A DNA stretch of 32,456 nucleotides from a virus. Positions within the stretch are counted from its first letter, which is position 1. The number at the start of each line of letters is the position of its first letter. The stretch lies in IMG/VR virus record IMGVR_UViG_3300022888_000022, positions 1 through 32,456 of that record, one strand, 5' to 3'. Both the position numbers and the translations under genes were made by a program. Shown here in pieces: positions 18,414-25,047 of this stretch. Under the pieces are notes generated by a model that was not told the origin of the DNA, ran no database searches, and was given only the letters and a program-made list of their open reading frames with translations.

Positions 18414-18757
18414 TTATGTGCCTCACATAATGTCCTGAGCCAGCTACCGTCCCTAATTTCGCCTGGCTCACCACAATCTTCGCATGTATTTTCTGATAGG
18501 TGTTCTGCGCCAGATATGATGTCCATAATTTCAATCGAGGATGCCGAGGTATAGAATCTCAAAGAGCCGAATTTCTCTTTCACTTGAAAGGCGACCACCT
18601 GGTGCCCGGTCTTATCAGATAGGGCTTGGAGTTCTCCGCAAAGATCGTCAATGATTTTATACCAACCATCGCCAGTTTCGATCTGAATGAAGAATTCGCC
18701 AGGGGGAAATATCTTCGGATACTTATTGAGTAACGCCTTTTCACGCCACGCTTTCAT
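18410..18757 (-). CDS. conserved phage protein with zinc-binding end
   Basis: A 115-residue protein of a family I know only as a conserved phage hypothetical. It contains GDGWYKIIDDLC, then VVAFQVKEKFGSLRFYT, and ends with a CxxC pair (TCEDCGEPGE) and a WLRTLCEAHK cysteine/histidine end, which together could bind zinc. The open frame extends far upstream into uvsX, but the ATG at 18757 sits behind AAGGAG and gives the compact family form; it overlaps the uvsX C-terminal frame by 17 nt. The function is unknown. It is co-transcribed with uvsX and gp41. Confidence 0.75.
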   Translation of the reverse strand: MKAWREKALLNKYPKIFPPGEFFIQIETGDGWYKIIDDLCGELQALSDKTGHQVVAFQVKEKFGSLRFYTSASSIEIMDIISGAEHLSENTCEDCGEPGEIRDGSWLRTLCEAHK

Positions 18758-19256
18758 CTTCATCTCCTTCAGTCTCTTCGGCCATAGAAGAGCCGTATAG
18801 ATACATCTTGCCCACTTGGGCATCACAAGCATCCAGAACATCTTGAGTAAAATACTTCTCAGGGTTGCGATAGATTTCTTTCTCCCATTGCTTTGAACCA
18901 TCTTGGAGTTCAATGCGCCCGGCTTTCTTCCAGATGCCAGAAGCCACAGCAACATCAGGGAGACCGTGATAACGAGACAGACCGTCAGCATAGGTGAGTT
19001 CTACACGGGCAATACTCTTCTCTTTGGTGAGCCGTGATTTCTGGAGACGGCATGAGATAATGTTACCCACAAACTCGGTACCGTCTTTCACCTGAGCCTT
19101 AGACAAGAACACGATTGTAGAGGCTGAATATTTCAAGCCACTGTTATGTGACACCACACCATTTTCTAAAACATAGTTGCCGTTATTCAATACAGTAATA
19201 TCCATTACTGATTGTTTGCCAACAGGGCGTATAGATTTGATTTTCAGATTATTCAT
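18741..19256 (-). CDS. uvsX: split intein C-fragment fused to C-terminal part of UvsX recombinase
   Basis: A 171-residue precursor. Residues 1-38 are an intein C-fragment: block F-like VMDITVLNNGNYVLENGV, then VVSHN, with the penultimate His and terminal Asn needed for Asn cyclisation. Residue 39 is Ser, the +1 nucleophile. Residues 39-171 continue UvsX/RecA from loop L2: SGLKYSASTIVFLSKAQ, then DGTEFVGNII. With the N-terminal precursor at 19976-20893 this should trans-splice into a 349-residue recombinase. The ATG overlaps the stop of the HNH gene (ATGA) and there is no close Shine-Dalgarno, so its synthesis may depend on translation of the endonuclease gene. Confidence 0.92.
   Translation of the reverse strand: MNNLKIKSIRPVGKQSVMDITVLNNGNYVLENGVVSHNSGLKYSASTIVFLSKAQVKDGTEFVGNIISCRLQKSRLTKEKSIARVELTYADGLSRYHGLPDVAVASGIWKKAGRIELQDGSKQWEKEIYRNPEKYFTQDVLDACDAQVGKMYLYGSSMAEETEGDEDESVA
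19143..19256 (-). other. IntC segment of split intein
   Basis: These 38 codons encode the C-terminal intein fragment ending VVSHN. The size is close to known natural split inteins such as gp41-1 (37 residues). Splicing would leave Ser at the extein junction. Confidence 0.9.
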
Positions 19257-19939
19257 AATATACGGATTTCCTTGATACCATTTTGTTTTAGTAAATGATT
19301 ATATTCATTTGTTAGTTTCATGCCGTATGAAACACTTTTTCCGATAACAGGACCTATAGATATTTTATTTTTCACATGGGTTTCCTTTCCGTCCAGGAAC
19401 ACTATAACACAACCGATATTTGCTTTTTCAGAAAGATATTTTTTAGTTTCCTTGCTGTGTTTTTTACCCGCAAAAGCATTAGGATTATGTTTATGGTATT
19501 CCTTATTCATCTTACTAATATGAGCCCTGGTTTCCGCTGTATGGATTTTACCATAGAAAGGATTGTTCTCACCACTCATGCTACTGTTACCATAGAAAGG
19601 ATTGTTCTCACCTCTCATAGCATCAGCCGCATTTTTTCTATGAATCTCAAACATCAAAGATGATTTACATCTGTTACCTTTACTATTTGACCTATTCATC
19701 ATAGAAAAAGCATAACCCATAGACCGTTTTGCTTTTGACTCTTTACACATTTTCAATAATAACCAATGGCAAAGAAAATGTTCTCTGGGAGTTAGTGTTG
19801 CGATATTATATTTCGCGTTAGAACCACCGAGACATTTGGGAATAATATGATGTTTTTCAACATATTGGAGTTCCCTTTTCTTTCTTCCATTAGATATTAT
19901 TTGAAAATACCATTTGGTATATTTGTTATCAATAAACAT
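19253..19939 (-). CDS. HNH homing endonuclease inside the fractured uvsX gene
   Basis: A 228-residue free-standing endonuclease. The HNH motif is VEKHHIIPKCLGGSN (27-41), N45 and PREHFLCHW (51-59). Two NUMOD3-type repeats, GENNPFYG (near residues 110 and 122), and a following THTAETRAHISK-like helix make the DNA-contacting tail, with a further GKKHSKETKKYLSEKA segment. It lies exactly between the two uvsX halves. Homing endonucleases cut intein-free or intron-free alleles and spread their locus through repair. It has its own late promoter (19964-19957) and an AAGGAG Shine-Dalgarno, while the flanking uvsX parts belong to an earlier transcription unit. Its stop overlaps the IntC start. Confidence 0.88.
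   Translation of the reverse strand: MFIDNKYTKWYFQIISNGRKKRELQYVEKHHIIPKCLGGSNAKYNIATLTPREHFLCHWLLLKMCKESKAKRSMGYAFSMMNRSNSKGNRCKSSLMFEIHRKNAADAMRGENNPFYGNSSMSGENNPFYGKIHTAETRAHISKMNKEYHKHNPNAFAGKKHSKETKKYLSEKANIGCVIVFLDGKETHVKNKISIGPVIGKSVSYGMKLTNEYNHLLKQNGIKEIRIL
19548..19612 (-). repeat. 26-bp direct repeat encoding duplicated NUMOD3 motifs
   Basis: Identical 26-bp copies at 19548-19573 and 19587-19612, 39 bases apart in register, encode the two GENNPFYG motifs of the HNH endonuclease. The identity at DNA level suggests a recent tandem duplication or gene conversion within the DNA-binding tail. Confidence 0.85.
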
Positions 19940-19956
19940 GATTTCTCCTTCATGCT

Positions 19957-19964
19957 TATTTATA
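19957..19964 (-). promoter_or_regulatory. T4-type late promoter of the HNH endonuclease gene
   Basis: TATAAATA on the minus strand in the 36-base gap between the IntN stop codon and the HNH start. The predicted start site near 19951 would leave a very short leader that begins at the AAGGAG Shine-Dalgarno. Confidence 0.7.
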
Positions 19965-19975
19965 AAAACAATATT

Positions 19976-20893
19976 TTACGTCTGTACCACCGTGAAGTTT
20001 TCAAGGTCTTTTTCAGCTATTTCTCTGGTAGTGATCCATTCGCCTTCAGATAAGAAACGGTGGTCCTCTGAACAAATGACTCTATGACCATCCTCAAACA
20101 CTATTTCATAACATGGTTTTTCATAAAAATATTTGTCTGTTACTTGTCCAAAACCATCCTTAGTTTCAACCCACGAATCTACAACTACATCTTCCATGCG
20201 CCGCAAACCATTTTGTGTTCTAATAACAGTTTCAGGAACAACACAGCCACCGCCCATTTGCTTGCCACCATACATACTCATGGAGTCGTATGTATGATTG
20301 GTGACTAGCAACGGAATACCAATCTTGCCTAGTTTCAACGTCAGCACTCTGAATGTGGCTTTTGCGATAGCCGCGCGGGTCATATCTTTCGTTTCAGAAC
20401 CCTCAAGGGTATCCTCAATCTCTTTGGTCGTTGAGAGCATACCAAAGGAATCCAACGCCATAATCATCGGGCGCTTCTCTTCCTGTTTCTCGTAGTTGTC
20501 CAAAATCTTGAGGGACTGGGTCCGAAACTCTTGGATGGTTGTAACAGGCACAATCATTACTCGGGTTGAGTCAATGCCACGGTCTTCAATCATATTCTTG
20601 GAGATAGCAGACTCAGACTCAAAGAAAATACAAACACCCTCTGGCTCATTATCCAGAAAATGCTTGATAACACCCAAGACGAAAAAGGTCTTGCCCGTGG
20701 CTTCTTCACCAGCAATAGCGGTAATCTTGTTGTTTGGAATGCCACCGAAAATGCTACCGCTCATTAGAGCATTGAACATATACGACCCGGTATCCATAAA
20801 ATCAGTAACATCACCCGCTGTGACGCCATCGGCTGCTACCGCGGCATACTCGTTATTGATGCCTTTGGTCATTGTTTTAAAAAAGTCAGTCAT
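19976..20893 (-). CDS. uvsX: N-terminal part of UvsX recombinase fused to split intein N-fragment
   Basis: A 305-residue precursor. Residues 1-216 are the RecA-family core of UvsX: Walker A GEEATGKT (62-69), FFESESA with the catalytic Glu (90-96), Walker B IMALDSFG (144-151) and [20 protein letters not shown] (197-216), which leads into DNA-binding loop L2. Residue 217 is Cys1 of an 89-residue IntN: block [11 protein letters not shown], block [14 protein letters not shown], then a stop. UvsX forms filaments on ssDNA and drives recombination-dependent replication. It is active only if joined to the C part at 18741-19256. The ATG at 20893 is preferred over the longer frame, since AGGAG precedes it and the extension runs through a palindrome. 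Confidence 0.93.
19979..20245 (-). other. IntN segment of split intein
   Basis: These 89 codons encode the N-terminal intein fragment with Cys1 (block A) and a block B SxxH (S59, H62 of the fragment), as in gp41-1-type inteins, where the N-fragment is 88 residues. The fragment ends at a stop codon after block B; no endonuclease block is present within the protein. Confidence 0.9.
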
Positions 20894-20942: not shown

Positions 20943-20991
20943 TGGTCTATAAACAGGCCATAAAGAGCCTTTATGGCCTGTTTATAGACCA
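20943..20991. repeat. 23-bp perfect inverted repeat upstream of uvsX
   Basis: Arms 20943-20965 and 20969-20991 are perfectly complementary, with a three-base loop. No T-run follows on either strand, so it is not a typical terminator. It lies 50 bases upstream of the uvsX ATG. Its minus-strand 5' arm contains TATAAACA, one base from a late promoter. The 180 bases between it and the gene at 21174 hold no supported gene, only a 24-codon frame (21045-20971) ending in the palindrome. Confidence 0.85.
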
Positions 20992-21611: not shown

Positions 21612-21640
21612 ATAATAACATATCCGCTGGGTAATGTCAA
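21612..21640 (-). promoter_or_regulatory. sigma70-type early promoter downstream of gp43
   Basis: TTGACA (21640-21635), a 17-bp spacer ending in TATGT and TATTAT (21617-21612), with extended -10 TGT. The TGA stop of the gp43 C-terminal part is embedded in the -35 box. It drives the two small genes and possibly uvsX beyond. Confidence 0.85.
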
Positions 21641-22746
21641 CCGAAAAACGCTTCAAGGGTCGCGCTATTATCGGTCTTCCATCCAATCACATCGGCGATA
21701 TTTCTAACAGGCGTCATGAAATTCCTATCAAACTGGAGGTCATAATCGATGTATTTTTCGATCCCGAATTCCTCAGGCAGTTCTGTCGATACGCAAAGCA
21801 CAGGAGAACCGATTGGATTGGGCTCTACCAAATAGCAGGCTTTGATTTTCTCGCCCTCCCTGATCTGTTCATACTTCTTGGTCAGCTTCCGTTCGTGGAG
21901 AAGATGGTTGAAAATCAACGCGCCTTTAACATGGAATGGTGTGCCGAGAATGAAAATGCCTTTTGTGTCGGCATACTTTTTCATACCATTCACACCAGAT
22001 GGTTTCGCCACGTCCATGAAATCCATCTTACGGAACTTTTCCTCAAAGGCAGTAATATGTTCGACTAGCTCGGCGGGTGTGCCATTCAACATAATCCGTA
22101 GGCATTCCCGAATAGCTTCCCTACACTCATAAGGAGTTGAAGATCGAACAACCTCAAGTCCCATAATCTTCACTTGAGGTTCGGCATATCGGACGCCCTC
22201 ATTATCAAGGACGTTCAATGCATAGCGTTTTTTGTTGGTCCATATACCGTTAGTTGCAATGACCTCGCGCTTCATTTTCATTTTTTGCTTGGAATTAAGT
22301 GTCTTAGCAAGGTCTTGATAACATCGATCAATAAACGGTTCAATTTTAGTGCTTGCCACCTTATCCAAAAAGGAAACGATCTGTTCCTTCGGAGTATCCC
22401 CTTCCACCGGGAACACAGTATCAACAAGGCCACTAAGATTGAGATAGACCGAATCTGTATCGCTTGCAATAACATAATCTTTGCCCTCCGTCTTTAGGAG
22501 ATTATTCAGATACTTATTCAACTTGGTCTCAATGAATCTGATGGCGACTTGGCCCGAAAGTGTAATGGCCTCGGCGTTCCGCAAATCGTAAAATCTGAAA
22601 TACTGGCTGCCCATGGCGCCATATGCGGAGTTAAGAGTGACTTTCAATGCCAACTGGAGATTGCTATACCTTGAAATTTCATCATCGGTCAGAGCCAGTT
22701 CATTTTTCAGTTCCTGGTCGGATAGTTCTTCTAGTTTTAATACCAC
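21637..22746 (-). CDS. 43: DNA polymerase gp43, C-terminal part (fingers helix, palm, thumb)
   Basis: About 369 residues forming the C-terminal part of a B-family polymerase. Motif B lies in NLQLALKVTLNSAYGAMGS, motif C is VIASDTDSVYL with both catalytic Asp, and a YALNVLDNEGVRYAEPQVKIMG-type palm/thumb segment follows (quoted in part: YALNVLDNEGVRY). The chain begins just before the second fingers helix, so it complements the N-terminal part at 23584-25047. No ATG is available: a GTG at 22746, seven bases after GGGAG, is the likely start, with TTG at 22749 an alternative. No intein residues flank it, so activity probably depends on non-covalent assembly of the two chains. Confidence 0.9.
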   Translation of the reverse strand: MVLKLEELSDQELKNELALTDDEISRYSNLQLALKVTLNSAYGAMGSQYFRFYDLRNAEAITLSGQVAIRFIETKLNKYLNNLLKTEGKDYVIASDTDSVYLNLSGLVDTVFPVEGDTPKEQIVSFLDKVASTKIEPFIDRCYQDLAKTLNSKQKMKMKREVIATNGIWTNKKRYALNVLDNEGVRYAEPQVKIMGLEVVRSSTPYECREAIRECLRIMLNGTPAELVEHITAFEEKFRKMDFMDVAKPSGVNGMKKYADTKGIFILGTPFHVKGALIFNHLLHERKLTKKYEQIREGEKIKACYLVEPNPIGSPVLCVSTELPEEFGIEKYIDYDLQFDRNFMTPVRNIADVIGWKTDNSATLEAFFG

Positions 22747-22891
22747 CAAGTTGCTCCCAATATTTAACTAACTCATTCCATTGTAACACATTTCCACCCA
22801 AACCACAAGTAAAAACGTGTTCTTCTACATTTGCCCAATCATGGCAGACTGGACAACAGAATTCTATTTTCGGCTGGCTATCTGGGCACAT
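22700..22891 (-). CDS. possible small zinc-finger protein overlapping the gp43 break
   Basis: A 63-codon frame with four cysteines (MCPDSQPKIEFCCPVCHDW, then EEHVFTCG) and a W-containing helix near its end (LQWNELVKYWEQLGG), loosely like restriction-alleviation (Lar-type) zinc proteins. The ATG at 22891 has GGAGG eight bases upstream. Against it, that Shine-Dalgarno is also Gly-Gly coding sequence in the GIY-YIG gene, and the frame overlaps that gene by 28 nt and gp43-C by 47 nt. It is reported with low confidence as a possible passenger of the homing insertion. Confidence 0.35.
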   Translation of the reverse strand: MCPDSQPKIEFCCPVCHDWANVEEHVFTCGLGGNVLQWNELVKYWEQLGGIKTRRTIRPGTEK

Positions 22892-23538
22892 TTTTTTCTT
22901 CCTCCAACATCGGCGCATTTTCTACTACAGAATCTATTATTCTTACTGGGAATAATTTCAAATTCTGAGCCACATTGGACACAGCACCTTATTACTCTAT
23001 GGATCATATTTTTATCTATTAATACTTTGGGTTTCTTAATACCATGTTCATTCAGTATTTTTTTCAAATAAGAAACGCTTATTCCATAATATTCAGCAAG
23101 ATCAGATCGTTTTTTGTTTTCGTTTACATACAAATTGTATAGTTCCTCATATGAGGGATCAATTTTTCTTAGTGCCCGTTTCTTCTCTTTATATGATCTT
23201 TTTCTTGCGGTAGTCCATTCATAACTACGAGATCCTTTACCCTCAAATATGTTTTTCAGCGGTCCTCCAGTATTGAATGTTCCCAGACGACTAATTAATT
23301 TTTCCTCATACTCTAAAGCATCATTTTCCACTTCACTTTCAAAAATATGTTGAATAATAGGAATATTATTATTTTCCATCAACCTTTTGATATGACTGTA
23401 AAGATATGGATTACTGCTGGTTTTGGGGTTATTCCATATCGATTTCTGCAAGTGGTGTTTACTTCTTCTATGCTTTCCTTTACCCACATAAAATATTTGA
23501 GCGGTCATGGGGTCTGTTAGAGTATACACATAATACAT
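22864..23538 (-). CDS. GIY-YIG homing endonuclease inside the fractured gp43 gene
   Basis: A 224-residue free-standing endonuclease. The GIY-YIG core begins at residue 2 (YYVYTLTDP, then IFYVGKGKHRR with the catalytic Arg region), followed by the glutamate-containing LEYEEKLISRLG. The middle has a helix-turn-helix-like segment (RSDLAEYYGISVSYLKKIL). The C terminus is a zinc knuckle (CCVQCGSEF, then FCSRKC), so DNA is probably bound by both parts. It sits between the two gp43 parts. A late promoter (23579-23572) lies upstream, unlike the early promoter of gp43. T4-like phages carry similar Seg-type enzymes that promote their own spread. Confidence 0.85.
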   Translation of the reverse strand: MYYVYTLTDPMTAQIFYVGKGKHRRSKHHLQKSIWNNPKTSSNPYLYSHIKRLMENNNIPIIQHIFESEVENDALEYEEKLISRLGTFNTGGPLKNIFEGKGSRSYEWTTARKRSYKEKKRALRKIDPSYEELYNLYVNENKKRSDLAEYYGISVSYLKKILNEHGIKKPKVLIDKNMIHRVIRCCVQCGSEFEIIPSKNNRFCSRKCADVGGRKKCAQIASRK

Positions 23539-23571
23539 CTTTTTATCCTACTTTACTATATCCTATATTCG

Positions 23572-23579
23572 TATTTATA
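23572..23579 (-). promoter_or_regulatory. T4-type late promoter of the GIY-YIG endonuclease gene
   Basis: TATAAATA on the minus strand, in the 45-base gap between the stop of the gp43 N-terminal part and the endonuclease ATG at 23538. Confidence 0.7.
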
Positions 23580-23583
23580 CAAA

Positions 23584-25047
23584 TCAGGTTTTCAACCCGC
23601 GGGATTCAATTTCTTTTAGGATTTCTTCTTTTCGCTTTCTAGCATCCATCATCTTGTTTTTTGCTGTCACACGACCATCATACATTTCACCCATGATGGT
23701 TGATAACATACCCTCAAATTCACGGGTATACATGGCACCATTCCCGGCGACAGAGAAGGTATCATGGAGTGGTTCGGTAACTCTCTCGTAAATGATATCC
23801 TCAATATTGATATCCATCGGCTCAGGCTGAATGGTTTCTGGTCCGATATTGAACTGGCGAATAAGCATTGGATACATAGAGGCTAGATCGAACGACATAA
23901 CCCACTTATGTTCGCCAATCAACGGCTGTTTAACATATGCTCCCTCGTAGGTATCCGACTTCTGATATACCTTCTTGGGTGAAACCACAATGCCCCTATT
24001 CAACAAATGGTTGGCAGTAATTGTATCCCACATCCTCACTTGCTTCTGGACATCAGGGATATTCACCTTGGTCAGGTACGCCAATGACAGGATCAAATCG
24101 ATCAAGCCCAGCTTATCGTCAAGGCGGTCGACCAACACAACGTCCTGAATGTTGTATTCGATAAACTTTTGATAATCATTCTTATATAGGAGATGGAGGG
24201 CGCCGTGTTCGGAGTAATCCAGTTTCTGCTCACCCAATTCAATCCATGCAATGTGATTCAGTTTGTAGGATTCTTGGGAACCACCACCGAATTTCTGGTA
24301 TAGAATGATGTAATCGGCTTCGGCAACGCCTACAATCTCGTAGGCTTGAACTCGGTTGCCATACCCTTGGTTGAATGTCCGTTCATATATCTTACCCCAG
24401 GGCGATAGCTTGTTCGCTACCTTTTCGCCCATGAGATTGGTAATTCGATTCACCAGATAGGGAATATCAAAGAGCTGGATATACCATCCAGTCACAACAT
24501 CGGGATAATCGGATGCCCAGAAATCCAGAAAGTTCAAAAGCAATTCTTTCTCATTCTGGCATTTCCGATAGAACACCTTATCTGGTGTTTTGTTGTCGAA
24601 TTCCCCGCAGCCAAATACCCAGTATTTGCCACCGATACCTACCGTGATCGATACGACTTCCTCTGTGGCTGGACCTGGTTCGGGGAAACCATTTTCAGAC
24701 GCAACCTCAATATCGATATTGGCAACGCGGAGTAATGATGAATCGAAATCGATATCACCATTCCATCGCTCGTTAATGTATGCGTAATTGTATAGGTTGT
24801 TGCCATATACCGTGACGTTGGCTACGTCACTATATGACTTGTAGAAATCCCTGGCTTCGCGGATGCTTTCAAACTGCATAGGACTGACATTGGTGCCATC
24901 CATAGCTTTGAAGCCAGAGTCTGTTTCTTGGGTTGCCACGTATAGGGTGGGCTTGTACGGCACCTTCTTAGAGTAACGTTCGGTACCTCGAACGCCTCTA
25001 AGGAGGATATTATTGCCGTAAACTTGAACGTCGGTATAAAAATCCAT
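23584..25047 (-). CDS. 43: DNA polymerase gp43, N-terminal part (exonuclease and palm motif A)
   Basis: A 487-residue N-terminal part of a T4-type family B polymerase. Exonuclease motifs are Exo I ANIDIEVA (D112, E114), Exo II GWYIQLFDIPY (187-197) and Exo III EYNIQDV (297-303). Polymerase motif A is DLASMYPMLI (387-396). The chain ends after a charged helix (KEEILKEIESRG) at the tip of the fingers, so motifs B and C are missing and are supplied by 21637-22746. The Asn common in Exo II is Tyr here. Transcription starts from the promoter at 25074-25102, with an AGAGGA Shine-Dalgarno. Together the parts would give a polymerase of about 856 residues, normal for the family. Confidence 0.93.
   Translation of the reverse strand: MDFYTDVQVYGNNILLRGVRGTERYSKKVPYKPTLYVATQETDSGFKAMDGTNVSPMQFESIREARDFYKSYSDVANVTVYGNNLYNYAYINERWNGDIDFDSSLLRVANIDIEVASENGFPEPGPATEEVVSITVGIGGKYWVFGCGEFDNKTPDKVFYRKCQNEKELLLNFLDFWASDYPDVVTGWYIQLFDIPYLVNRITNLMGEKVANKLSPWGKIYERTFNQGYGNRVQAYEIVGVAEADYIILYQKFGGGSQESYKLNHIAWIELGEQKLDYSEHGALHLLYKNDYQKFIEYNIQDVVLVDRLDDKLGLIDLILSLAYLTKVNIPDVQKQVRMWDTITANHLLNRGIVVSPKKVYQKSDTYEGAYVKQPLIGEHKWVMSFDLASMYPMLIRQFNIGPETIQPEPMDINIEDIIYERVTEPLHDTFSVAGNGAMYTREFEGMLSTIMGEMYDGRVTAKNKMMDARKRKEEILKEIESRGLKT

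What the first reader, a model, noticed from the sequence alone, without database searches (positions are those of the whole stretch)
18741..20893. UvsX recombinase encoded as a fractured gene joined by a split intein, with an HNH endonuclease between the halves
Seen: UvsX stops after MGGG, the next residue is Cys1 of an 89-residue IntN with blocks A and B, and then the frame ends. After an intact HNH gene, a new frame starts with a 38-residue IntC ending VVSHN, followed by SGLKYSAS, the exact continuation of loop L2. Known: fractured genes of this form were found in phage-like metagenomic sequences for gp41, NrdJ and IMPDH. Inference: this is the same arrangement in a RecA-type recombinase, with the insertion in the DNA-binding loop, so no functional UvsX exists before splicing. 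The fragment sizes match fast gp41-1-like inteins, making it a candidate efficient trans-splicing pair.
Basis: partly seen in the sequence, partly recalled or inferred. Interest (0 to 1): 0.93.

Follow-up and report, generated by a model that had tools for sequence, protein, structure and literature searches.

The report
Phage recombinase gene split by mobile intein
A virus of bacteria carries its DNA-repair recombinase gene in two pieces that are predicted to join as proteins through a split intein with a DNA-cutting gene between them; this arrangement turns out to be widespread at the same spot in many T4-like phages, moves between phage genera, and has lost its cutting gene repeatedly, once apparently fusing back into one piece.

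Summary
On the minus strand, UvsX residues 1-216 end in MGGG and run straight into an 89-aa IntN (Cys1, block-B His). A 228-aa HNH/NUMOD3 gene follows, then a 38-aa IntC (ending VVSHN) and SGLKY..., the exact continuation of UvsX. The joined exteins align without a gap to solved UvsX, and a near-identical second contig repeats the layout.

It is not a singleton. The same site holds a split intein in about 19 named T4-like phages, and 165 IMG/VR contigs hold relatives (80 read). Unrelated endonucleases sit in the middle: HNH, GIY-YIG and Vsr-like. In EnC07, CF-SP2 and Lion_ER11 the cassette is 99-100% identical while flanking uvsX is 81-84%, so it moved recently as a unit. EnA02/EnC07 give an exact empty/filled site. 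Some relatives are split with no endonuclease, some are contiguous mini-inteins. One contiguous copy matches its split sister except for a 726-nt gap starting at the IntN stop codon, and keeps the old ribosome site and ATG, which points to re-fusion.

Verdict: a real split intein, very likely trans-splicing; new member of the known "fractured gene" kind. Splicing and cleavage are untested. Whether Dassa 2009 listed UvsX could not be checked.

The parts
20246..20893 (-). UvsX N-extein, 216 aa (MTDFF...MGGG), with Walker [10 protein letters not shown]
19976..20245 (-). IntN, 89 aa, Cys1 and block B SEDH, then stop TAA (19976-19978)
   Evidence: (TIGR01445 E 3.5e-4, just under its cut-off)
19957..19964 (-). 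TATAAATA, T4-late-type promoter element upstream of the HNH gene
   Evidence: in relatives 26 of 45 loci have it within 120 nt of the IntN stop against 0.93 expected
19253..19939 (-). free-standing HNH + NUMOD3 homing endonuclease gene, 228 aa; its stop overlaps the IntC start (ATGA)
   Evidence: phrog_655 homing endonuclease 3.3e-41 on the identical protein in L002
19143..19256 (-). IntC, 38 aa (MNNLK...ENGVVSHN)
   Evidence: (TIGR01443 19.8 bits, above cut-off 15.6)
18741..19142 (-). UvsX C-extein, 133 aa, +1 residue Ser (SGLKYSAS...), plus stop

Best explanation
A mobile split-intein cassette (IntN, HNH endonuclease gene, IntC) sits in uvsX at the codon junction for the C-terminal end of DNA-binding loop L2. 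The two uvsX halves are made as separate proteins. IntN and IntC fold together into a class-1 Hint domain that ligates Gly216 to Ser217 and gives a 349-aa UvsX (inferred from residues, fold and conservation). The HNH protein is predicted to cut intein-free uvsX, and repair of the cut from the intein-bearing copy spreads the cassette (inferred for this copy; cassette movement is shown for relatives). The endonuclease brings its own late-type promoter, and its stop codon overlaps the start of the IntC-UvsX half, so translation of the downstream half is probably coupled to it (sequence shown, coupling inferred). In T4, homing depends on UvsX or RecA (PMC2988022), so the element probably needs the product of the gene it interrupts.
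For: Layout and residues; gapless joined exteins; intein profiles and structures; 13-member alignment with invariant C1, block-B H62, H126 and N127; a second near-identical contig; the same site and architecture in phages and contigs; exact empty/filled junction EnA02 vs EnC07, insert exactly Cys1..Asn, 1157 nt, no duplication; cassette 99-100% identical against 81-84% flanks between phages of Enterobacter, Salmonella and Klebsiella; rough dN/dS 0.06-0.13 for IntN and 0.02-0.13 for IntC in the pairs where it could be computed; late-type element in 26 of 45 loci against 0.93 expected; ATGA overlap repeated in about 25 of 60 split loci with a middle ORF, near-duplicates included; UvsX/RecA needed for T4 homing (PMC2988022).
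Against: No splicing or cleavage assay. The window's own intein is among the most divergent of the set (long branch) and its profile scores are weak taken half by half. Pfam HNH scores are below the curated cut-offs; NUMOD3 and PHROG carry the call. No relative with an identical cassette but different flanks was found for this particular HNH version, so its own mobility is inferred.
Confidence: 0.9

Rival explanations
1. The two UvsX pieces assemble without covalent joining, the intein being a dead remnant, as in T4-like enzymes split by endonucleases without inteins.
For: Split NrdA of phage Aeh1 and split gp43 of phage 25 work as separate chains (PMC2988022); the PolB of this same window is split by a GIY-YIG gene with no intein seen.
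Against: Catalytic residues are intact and invariant across 13 diverse members; both intein halves are under strong purifying selection in relatives; several relatives have lost the endonuclease but kept a complete intein, split or contiguous. A break in L2 with about 127 extra residues is a poor place for non-covalent repair (inference).
Confidence: 0.06
2. Assembly or frameshift artefact of a contiguous intein with an internal HNH domain.
For: Single metagenomic contig; contiguous mini-inteins do exist at this site.
Against: Near-identical second contig with the same breaks; an independent start codon, ribosome site and promoter element precede the HNH gene; same layout in about 19 named phages.
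Confidence: 0.01
3. RNA-level solution: a group I intron or RNA trans-splicing joins the halves before translation.
For: HNH/NUMOD3 and GIY-YIG endonucleases often ride in group I introns.
Against: No Rfam match in the window; the insert reads in frame as intein on both sides, and the boundaries are Cys1 and Asn codons.
Confidence: 0.01

Closest known systems
Fractured genes with split inteins and free-standing endonucleases (Dassa et al. 2009, NAR 37:2560; abstract known from memory, paper not held)
   Same: Conserved DNA-metabolism gene broken in two, IntN/IntC at the break, free-standing endonuclease gene between, phage origin.
   Different: Host protein here is UvsX. Whether UvsX is one of the eight enzyme types listed there could not be checked.
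gp41-1 split intein (PDB 6qaz)
   Same: Among the closest inteins by sequence (2.3e-8, after Npu DnaE and related DnaE constructs), closest intein fold to a homologous contiguous intein (TM 0.88 normalised to the target, rmsd 1.9), similar fragment sizes (88+37 from memory against 89+38).
   Different: Different host gene; low sequence identity; splicing rate unknown.
Split uvsX of Enterobacter phage EnC07, Salmonella CF-SP2, Yersinia TG1, Shewanella Thanatos-1, Escherichia HY03 and others
   Same: Same gene, same residue junction, split intein with an endonuclease gene between.
   Different: GIY-YIG-type rather than HNH in the ones examined; exteins about 30% identical to the window; annotated as two recombination proteins, a hypothetical or even a portal protein.
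Mycobacterium tuberculosis RecA intein
   Same: Intein in a RecA-family recombinase.
   Different: Contiguous, with its own endonuclease domain, at another position (residue 251, from memory).
SegA of phage T4 (PMC2988022)
   Same: Homing endonuclease that targets uvsX.
   Different: Free-standing beside the gene; does not interrupt it and has no intein.

Membership tests
Fractured gene / split intein with free-standing endonuclease | Conserved enzyme coding region broken in two, exteins contiguous | tested here: met
Fractured gene / split intein with free-standing endonuclease | IntN ends the first ORF and IntC begins the second, catalytic residues intact | tested here: met
Fractured gene / split intein with free-standing endonuclease | Free-standing endonuclease gene between the halves | tested here: met
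Fractured gene / split intein with free-standing endonuclease | Halves ligate by protein trans-splicing | not testable with these tools
   needs co-expression or phage proteomics
Class 1 intein (Hint domain) | Cys1, block B His, C-terminal His-Asn, +1 Ser/Thr/Cys | tested here: met
Class 1 intein (Hint domain) | Hint fold | tested here: inconclusive
   Met on a homologous contiguous intein (L076), not modelled for the window itself: intein segment pLDDT about 60-88, gp41-1 best intein match, overall model poor; window halves by sequence only
UvsX recombinase | RecA core with Walker A, full-length match to the UvsX family | tested here: met
HNH homing endonuclease | HNH motif with homing DNA-binding repeats | tested here: met
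   VEKHHIIPK..N..H by eye; Pfam HNH 15.9 bits is below its cut-off, NUMOD3 47.6 is above; phrog_655 3.3e-41
HNH homing endonuclease | Cuts the intein-free allele | not testable with these tools
   indirect: exact empty/filled sites and cassette transfer in relatives with GIY-type endonucleases
Group I intron | Rfam group I core RNA at the interruption | tested here: not met
   no gathering-threshold match in the window

The most novel reading that the evidence does not exclude
The uvsX L2 site is a natural series in which one intein family passes back and forth between contiguous, split-without-endonuclease and split-with-endonuclease states, with unrelated endonucleases swapped in, so that the split state of an intein is reversible. 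The clearest case is L118, a contiguous intein that differs from its 98-99.9% identical split sister L112 by an exact 726-nt gap starting at the IntN stop codon and still contains the IntC ribosome site and ATG as codons EEIMK. In the occupied state, the endonuclease's late-type promoter and overlapping stop codon would make supply of half of the recombinase, which homing itself needs, depend on the endonuclease gene.
Probability: 0.5. Interest if true: 0.8.

Novelty: new member of a known kind. Interest (0 to 1): 0.62.

Why it matters
uvsX becomes a well-populated host for split inteins at a single site, in cultured T4-like phages whose halves are annotated as separate genes. It gives matched pairs (empty vs filled, with vs without endonuclease, split vs contiguous) in which how inteins become split, lose their endonuclease and fuse again can be tested directly. 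It also gives many candidate gp41-1-like trans-splicing pairs, and a case where a selfish element interrupts the recombinase that homing depends on.

Tried and rejected
Group I intron: no Rfam hit. Assembly artefact: second contig and many phages. Bacterial RecA or plasmid origin: no plasmid match; the one genome scan gave one weak hit in a MAG over 23 residues, which was not followed. Structure prediction of a homologous contiguous UvsX gave a poor overall model (pLDDT 58.6); only the intein segment was usable. Dassa 2009 and Carvajal-Vallejos 2012 are not held. Searches of the open-licence library found no paper reporting a uvsX intein; this is not proof that none exists. The intein tree is poorly resolved (127 columns), so directions of most architecture changes are not claimed.

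Full report
What is there. The window is a whole 32,456-base IMG/VR virus record with T4-like replication genes (PolB, sliding clamp, clamp loader, UvsX, DnaB-type helicase). On the minus strand UvsX is encoded in two ORFs. The first (20893..19976) is 216 residues of UvsX ending MGGG followed immediately by an 89-residue intein N-fragment. The second (19256..18741) is a 38-residue intein C-fragment ending VVSHN followed by SGLKYSAS and the rest of UvsX. Between them lies a 228-aa ORF with HNH and NUMOD3 motifs.

It is a real UvsX and a real intein. The joined 349-aa protein aligns over 96% with UvsX/RecA-like proteins of Pelagibacter, Methylophilales and Synechococcus phages at 58-60% and with PDB 9gbg UvsX without a gap at the junction. 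The PHROG UvsX profile is matched at positions 20-239 by the first ORF and 239-329 by the second. The intein halves score weakly one at a time but together hit Npu DnaE and gp41-1 intein structures (4.8e-10, 2.3e-8), and they align with 12 other inteins, all split, in which Cys1, the block-B His and the terminal His-Asn are invariant. The insertion point corresponds to TTGG|NALKF of E. coli RecA, the C-terminal end of loop L2 (loop limits from memory). A second contig, 99.845% identical over 7,099 nt, repeats the layout with identical proteins.

Expression signals. A TATAAATA element lies about 17 nt upstream of the HNH start codon. TATAAATA is enriched in the window (8 against 1.8 expected), and in related loci it falls within 120 nt after the IntN stop in 26 of 45 cases against 0.93 expected. 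That matches a T4-type late promoter carried by the endonuclease gene (motif identity from general knowledge). The HNH stop codon overlaps the IntC start as ATGA; the same 4-nt overlap recurs in about 25 of 60 split loci with a middle ORF, near-duplicates included. Translational coupling is an inference. G+C is 0.46-0.475 in the exteins but 0.385, 0.328 and 0.333 in IntN, HNH and IntC, as expected of an insert.

It is not unique. Tblastn of the inteins found uvsX genes broken at the same residue in cultured phages: PspYZU05, TG1, EniLVp02, EnC07, Thanatos-1, SEA1, Lion_ER11 and VmeM-32, then CF-SP2, pSe_SNUABM_01, HY03, SYGD1, ELT1, Pm5461, PM2 and others, about 19 distinct phages (regions of CF-SP2, pSe_SNUABM_01, HY03, SYGD1 and Pm5461 read; the rest by match only). 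Their halves are annotated as two recombination proteins, hypothetical proteins or even a portal protein, and PHROGs seems to hold the halves as separate families phrog_8337 and phrog_18112. A scan of IMG/VR found 165 relatives, of which 80 were read. Plasmids gave nothing and one genome scan gave a single weak hit, so on this evidence the family is confined to phages.

One site, many states. Of 79 loci with a complete intein at this site (near-duplicates included), I labelled by simple motifs 24 with GIY-type, 20 with HNH, 5 with Vsr-like and 10 with other middle ORFs, 14 split with no intact endonuclease, and 6 contiguous mini-inteins of 127-140 aa. On the intein tree the architectures are interleaved: at least 5 changes between contiguous and split and at least 14 between endonuclease present and absent (the tree is short and weakly resolved). 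A second site about 11-12 residues upstream is used in L021 (split, no endonuclease) and L074, whose UvsX carries both a split intein there and a contiguous intein at the main site.

Mobility. EnA02 (empty) and EnC07 (filled) align up to the last base before Cys1 and resume at the first base after Asn: the insert is exactly 1157 nt with no duplication; S16 and CF-SP2 show the same boundaries. Between EnC07, CF-SP2 and Lion_ER11 the cassette is 99-100% identical while uvsX on either side is 81-84%. L108, L112 and L122 share a nearly identical intein (98.7-100%) inside uvsX genes that differ by over 20%. So whole cassettes, endonuclease included in the first set, have moved recently. None of these carries the window's own HNH version, whose mobility is therefore inferred.

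Reversal of the split. L118 and L112 are 98-99.9% identical over 3.2 kb, but L118 lacks 726 nt that begin at the IntN stop codon, so IntN runs in frame into IntC. The IntC ribosome site and start codon of the split form (GAGGAAATTATGAAA) survive in L118 as codons EEIMK. The simplest reading is loss of the endonuclease with re-fusion of a split intein. The opposite direction is not strictly excluded, and the source reads were not seen. L122 shows endonuclease loss with the split kept (a 52-nt remnant holding the end of the endonuclease gene), and L098 a third deletion, 99.4% identical to its HNH-bearing sister L097.

Function. Rough Nei-Gojobori dN/dS between relatives is low for IntN and IntC and somewhat higher for most endonucleases, as expected if splicing is needed and the endonuclease is more dispensable. 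A model of a homologous contiguous UvsX is poor overall, but its intein segment matches gp41-1 (TM 0.88 normalised to the target) better than any other solved intein by E-value. Trans-splicing of the window's halves, cutting by its HNH protein and coupling of translation are not shown here. In T4, homing depends on UvsX or host RecA (PMC2988022), so this element probably relies on the recombinase it interrupts.

Novelty. The arrangement belongs to the fractured-gene kind of Dassa et al. 2009, which was not available to read; that abstract, from memory, speaks of eight enzyme types and I cannot say whether UvsX is one. No paper in the searched library reports a uvsX intein. The window itself is a new member of a known kind. 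The series at the uvsX site, and the split-to-contiguous case in particular, is the part I would follow.

Noticed in passing
window 21637-25047 (-): PolB is also in two ORFs, separated by a GIY-YIG gene (22864-23538) preceded by TATAAATA (23572-23579); no intein motifs. Relatives L004, L006, L007 and L010 have it contiguous; L005 is split with a 409-nt gap.
   Followed up: partly
L074:1800-4510 and L021:379-2008: A second intein site in uvsX about 11-12 residues upstream (TNHxY...VG|C, HN|S...); L074 has a split intein there and a contiguous intein at the main site, with an 11-residue extein between them.
   Followed up: partly
window 20943-20991: Perfect 23-bp inverted repeat with a 3-nt loop just upstream of uvsX, possibly a terminator or regulatory hairpin.
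   Followed up: no
window, whole: TATAAATA occurs 8 times against 1.8 expected, 7 of them on the minus strand, which carries the genes: likely late-type promoters upstream of several genes.
   Followed up: no
L028:1503-5114: A long open frame of a probable DNA polymerase I that appears to hold two inteins, one after GTATGRL and one after VFVSNDL, each ending in HN followed by S.
   Followed up: no
L043:3001-3648 (phage SYGD1): IntC-UvsX half annotated as a portal protein; in other phages this half is a hypothetical protein.
   Followed up: no
L113:3273-3959, L111:2553-4001: Middle ORFs that fit none of the motif classes cleanly: L113 has no clear family; L111 (483 aa) has an IEFNGLYYH motif and was grouped with the Vsr-like set by eye.
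   Followed up: no
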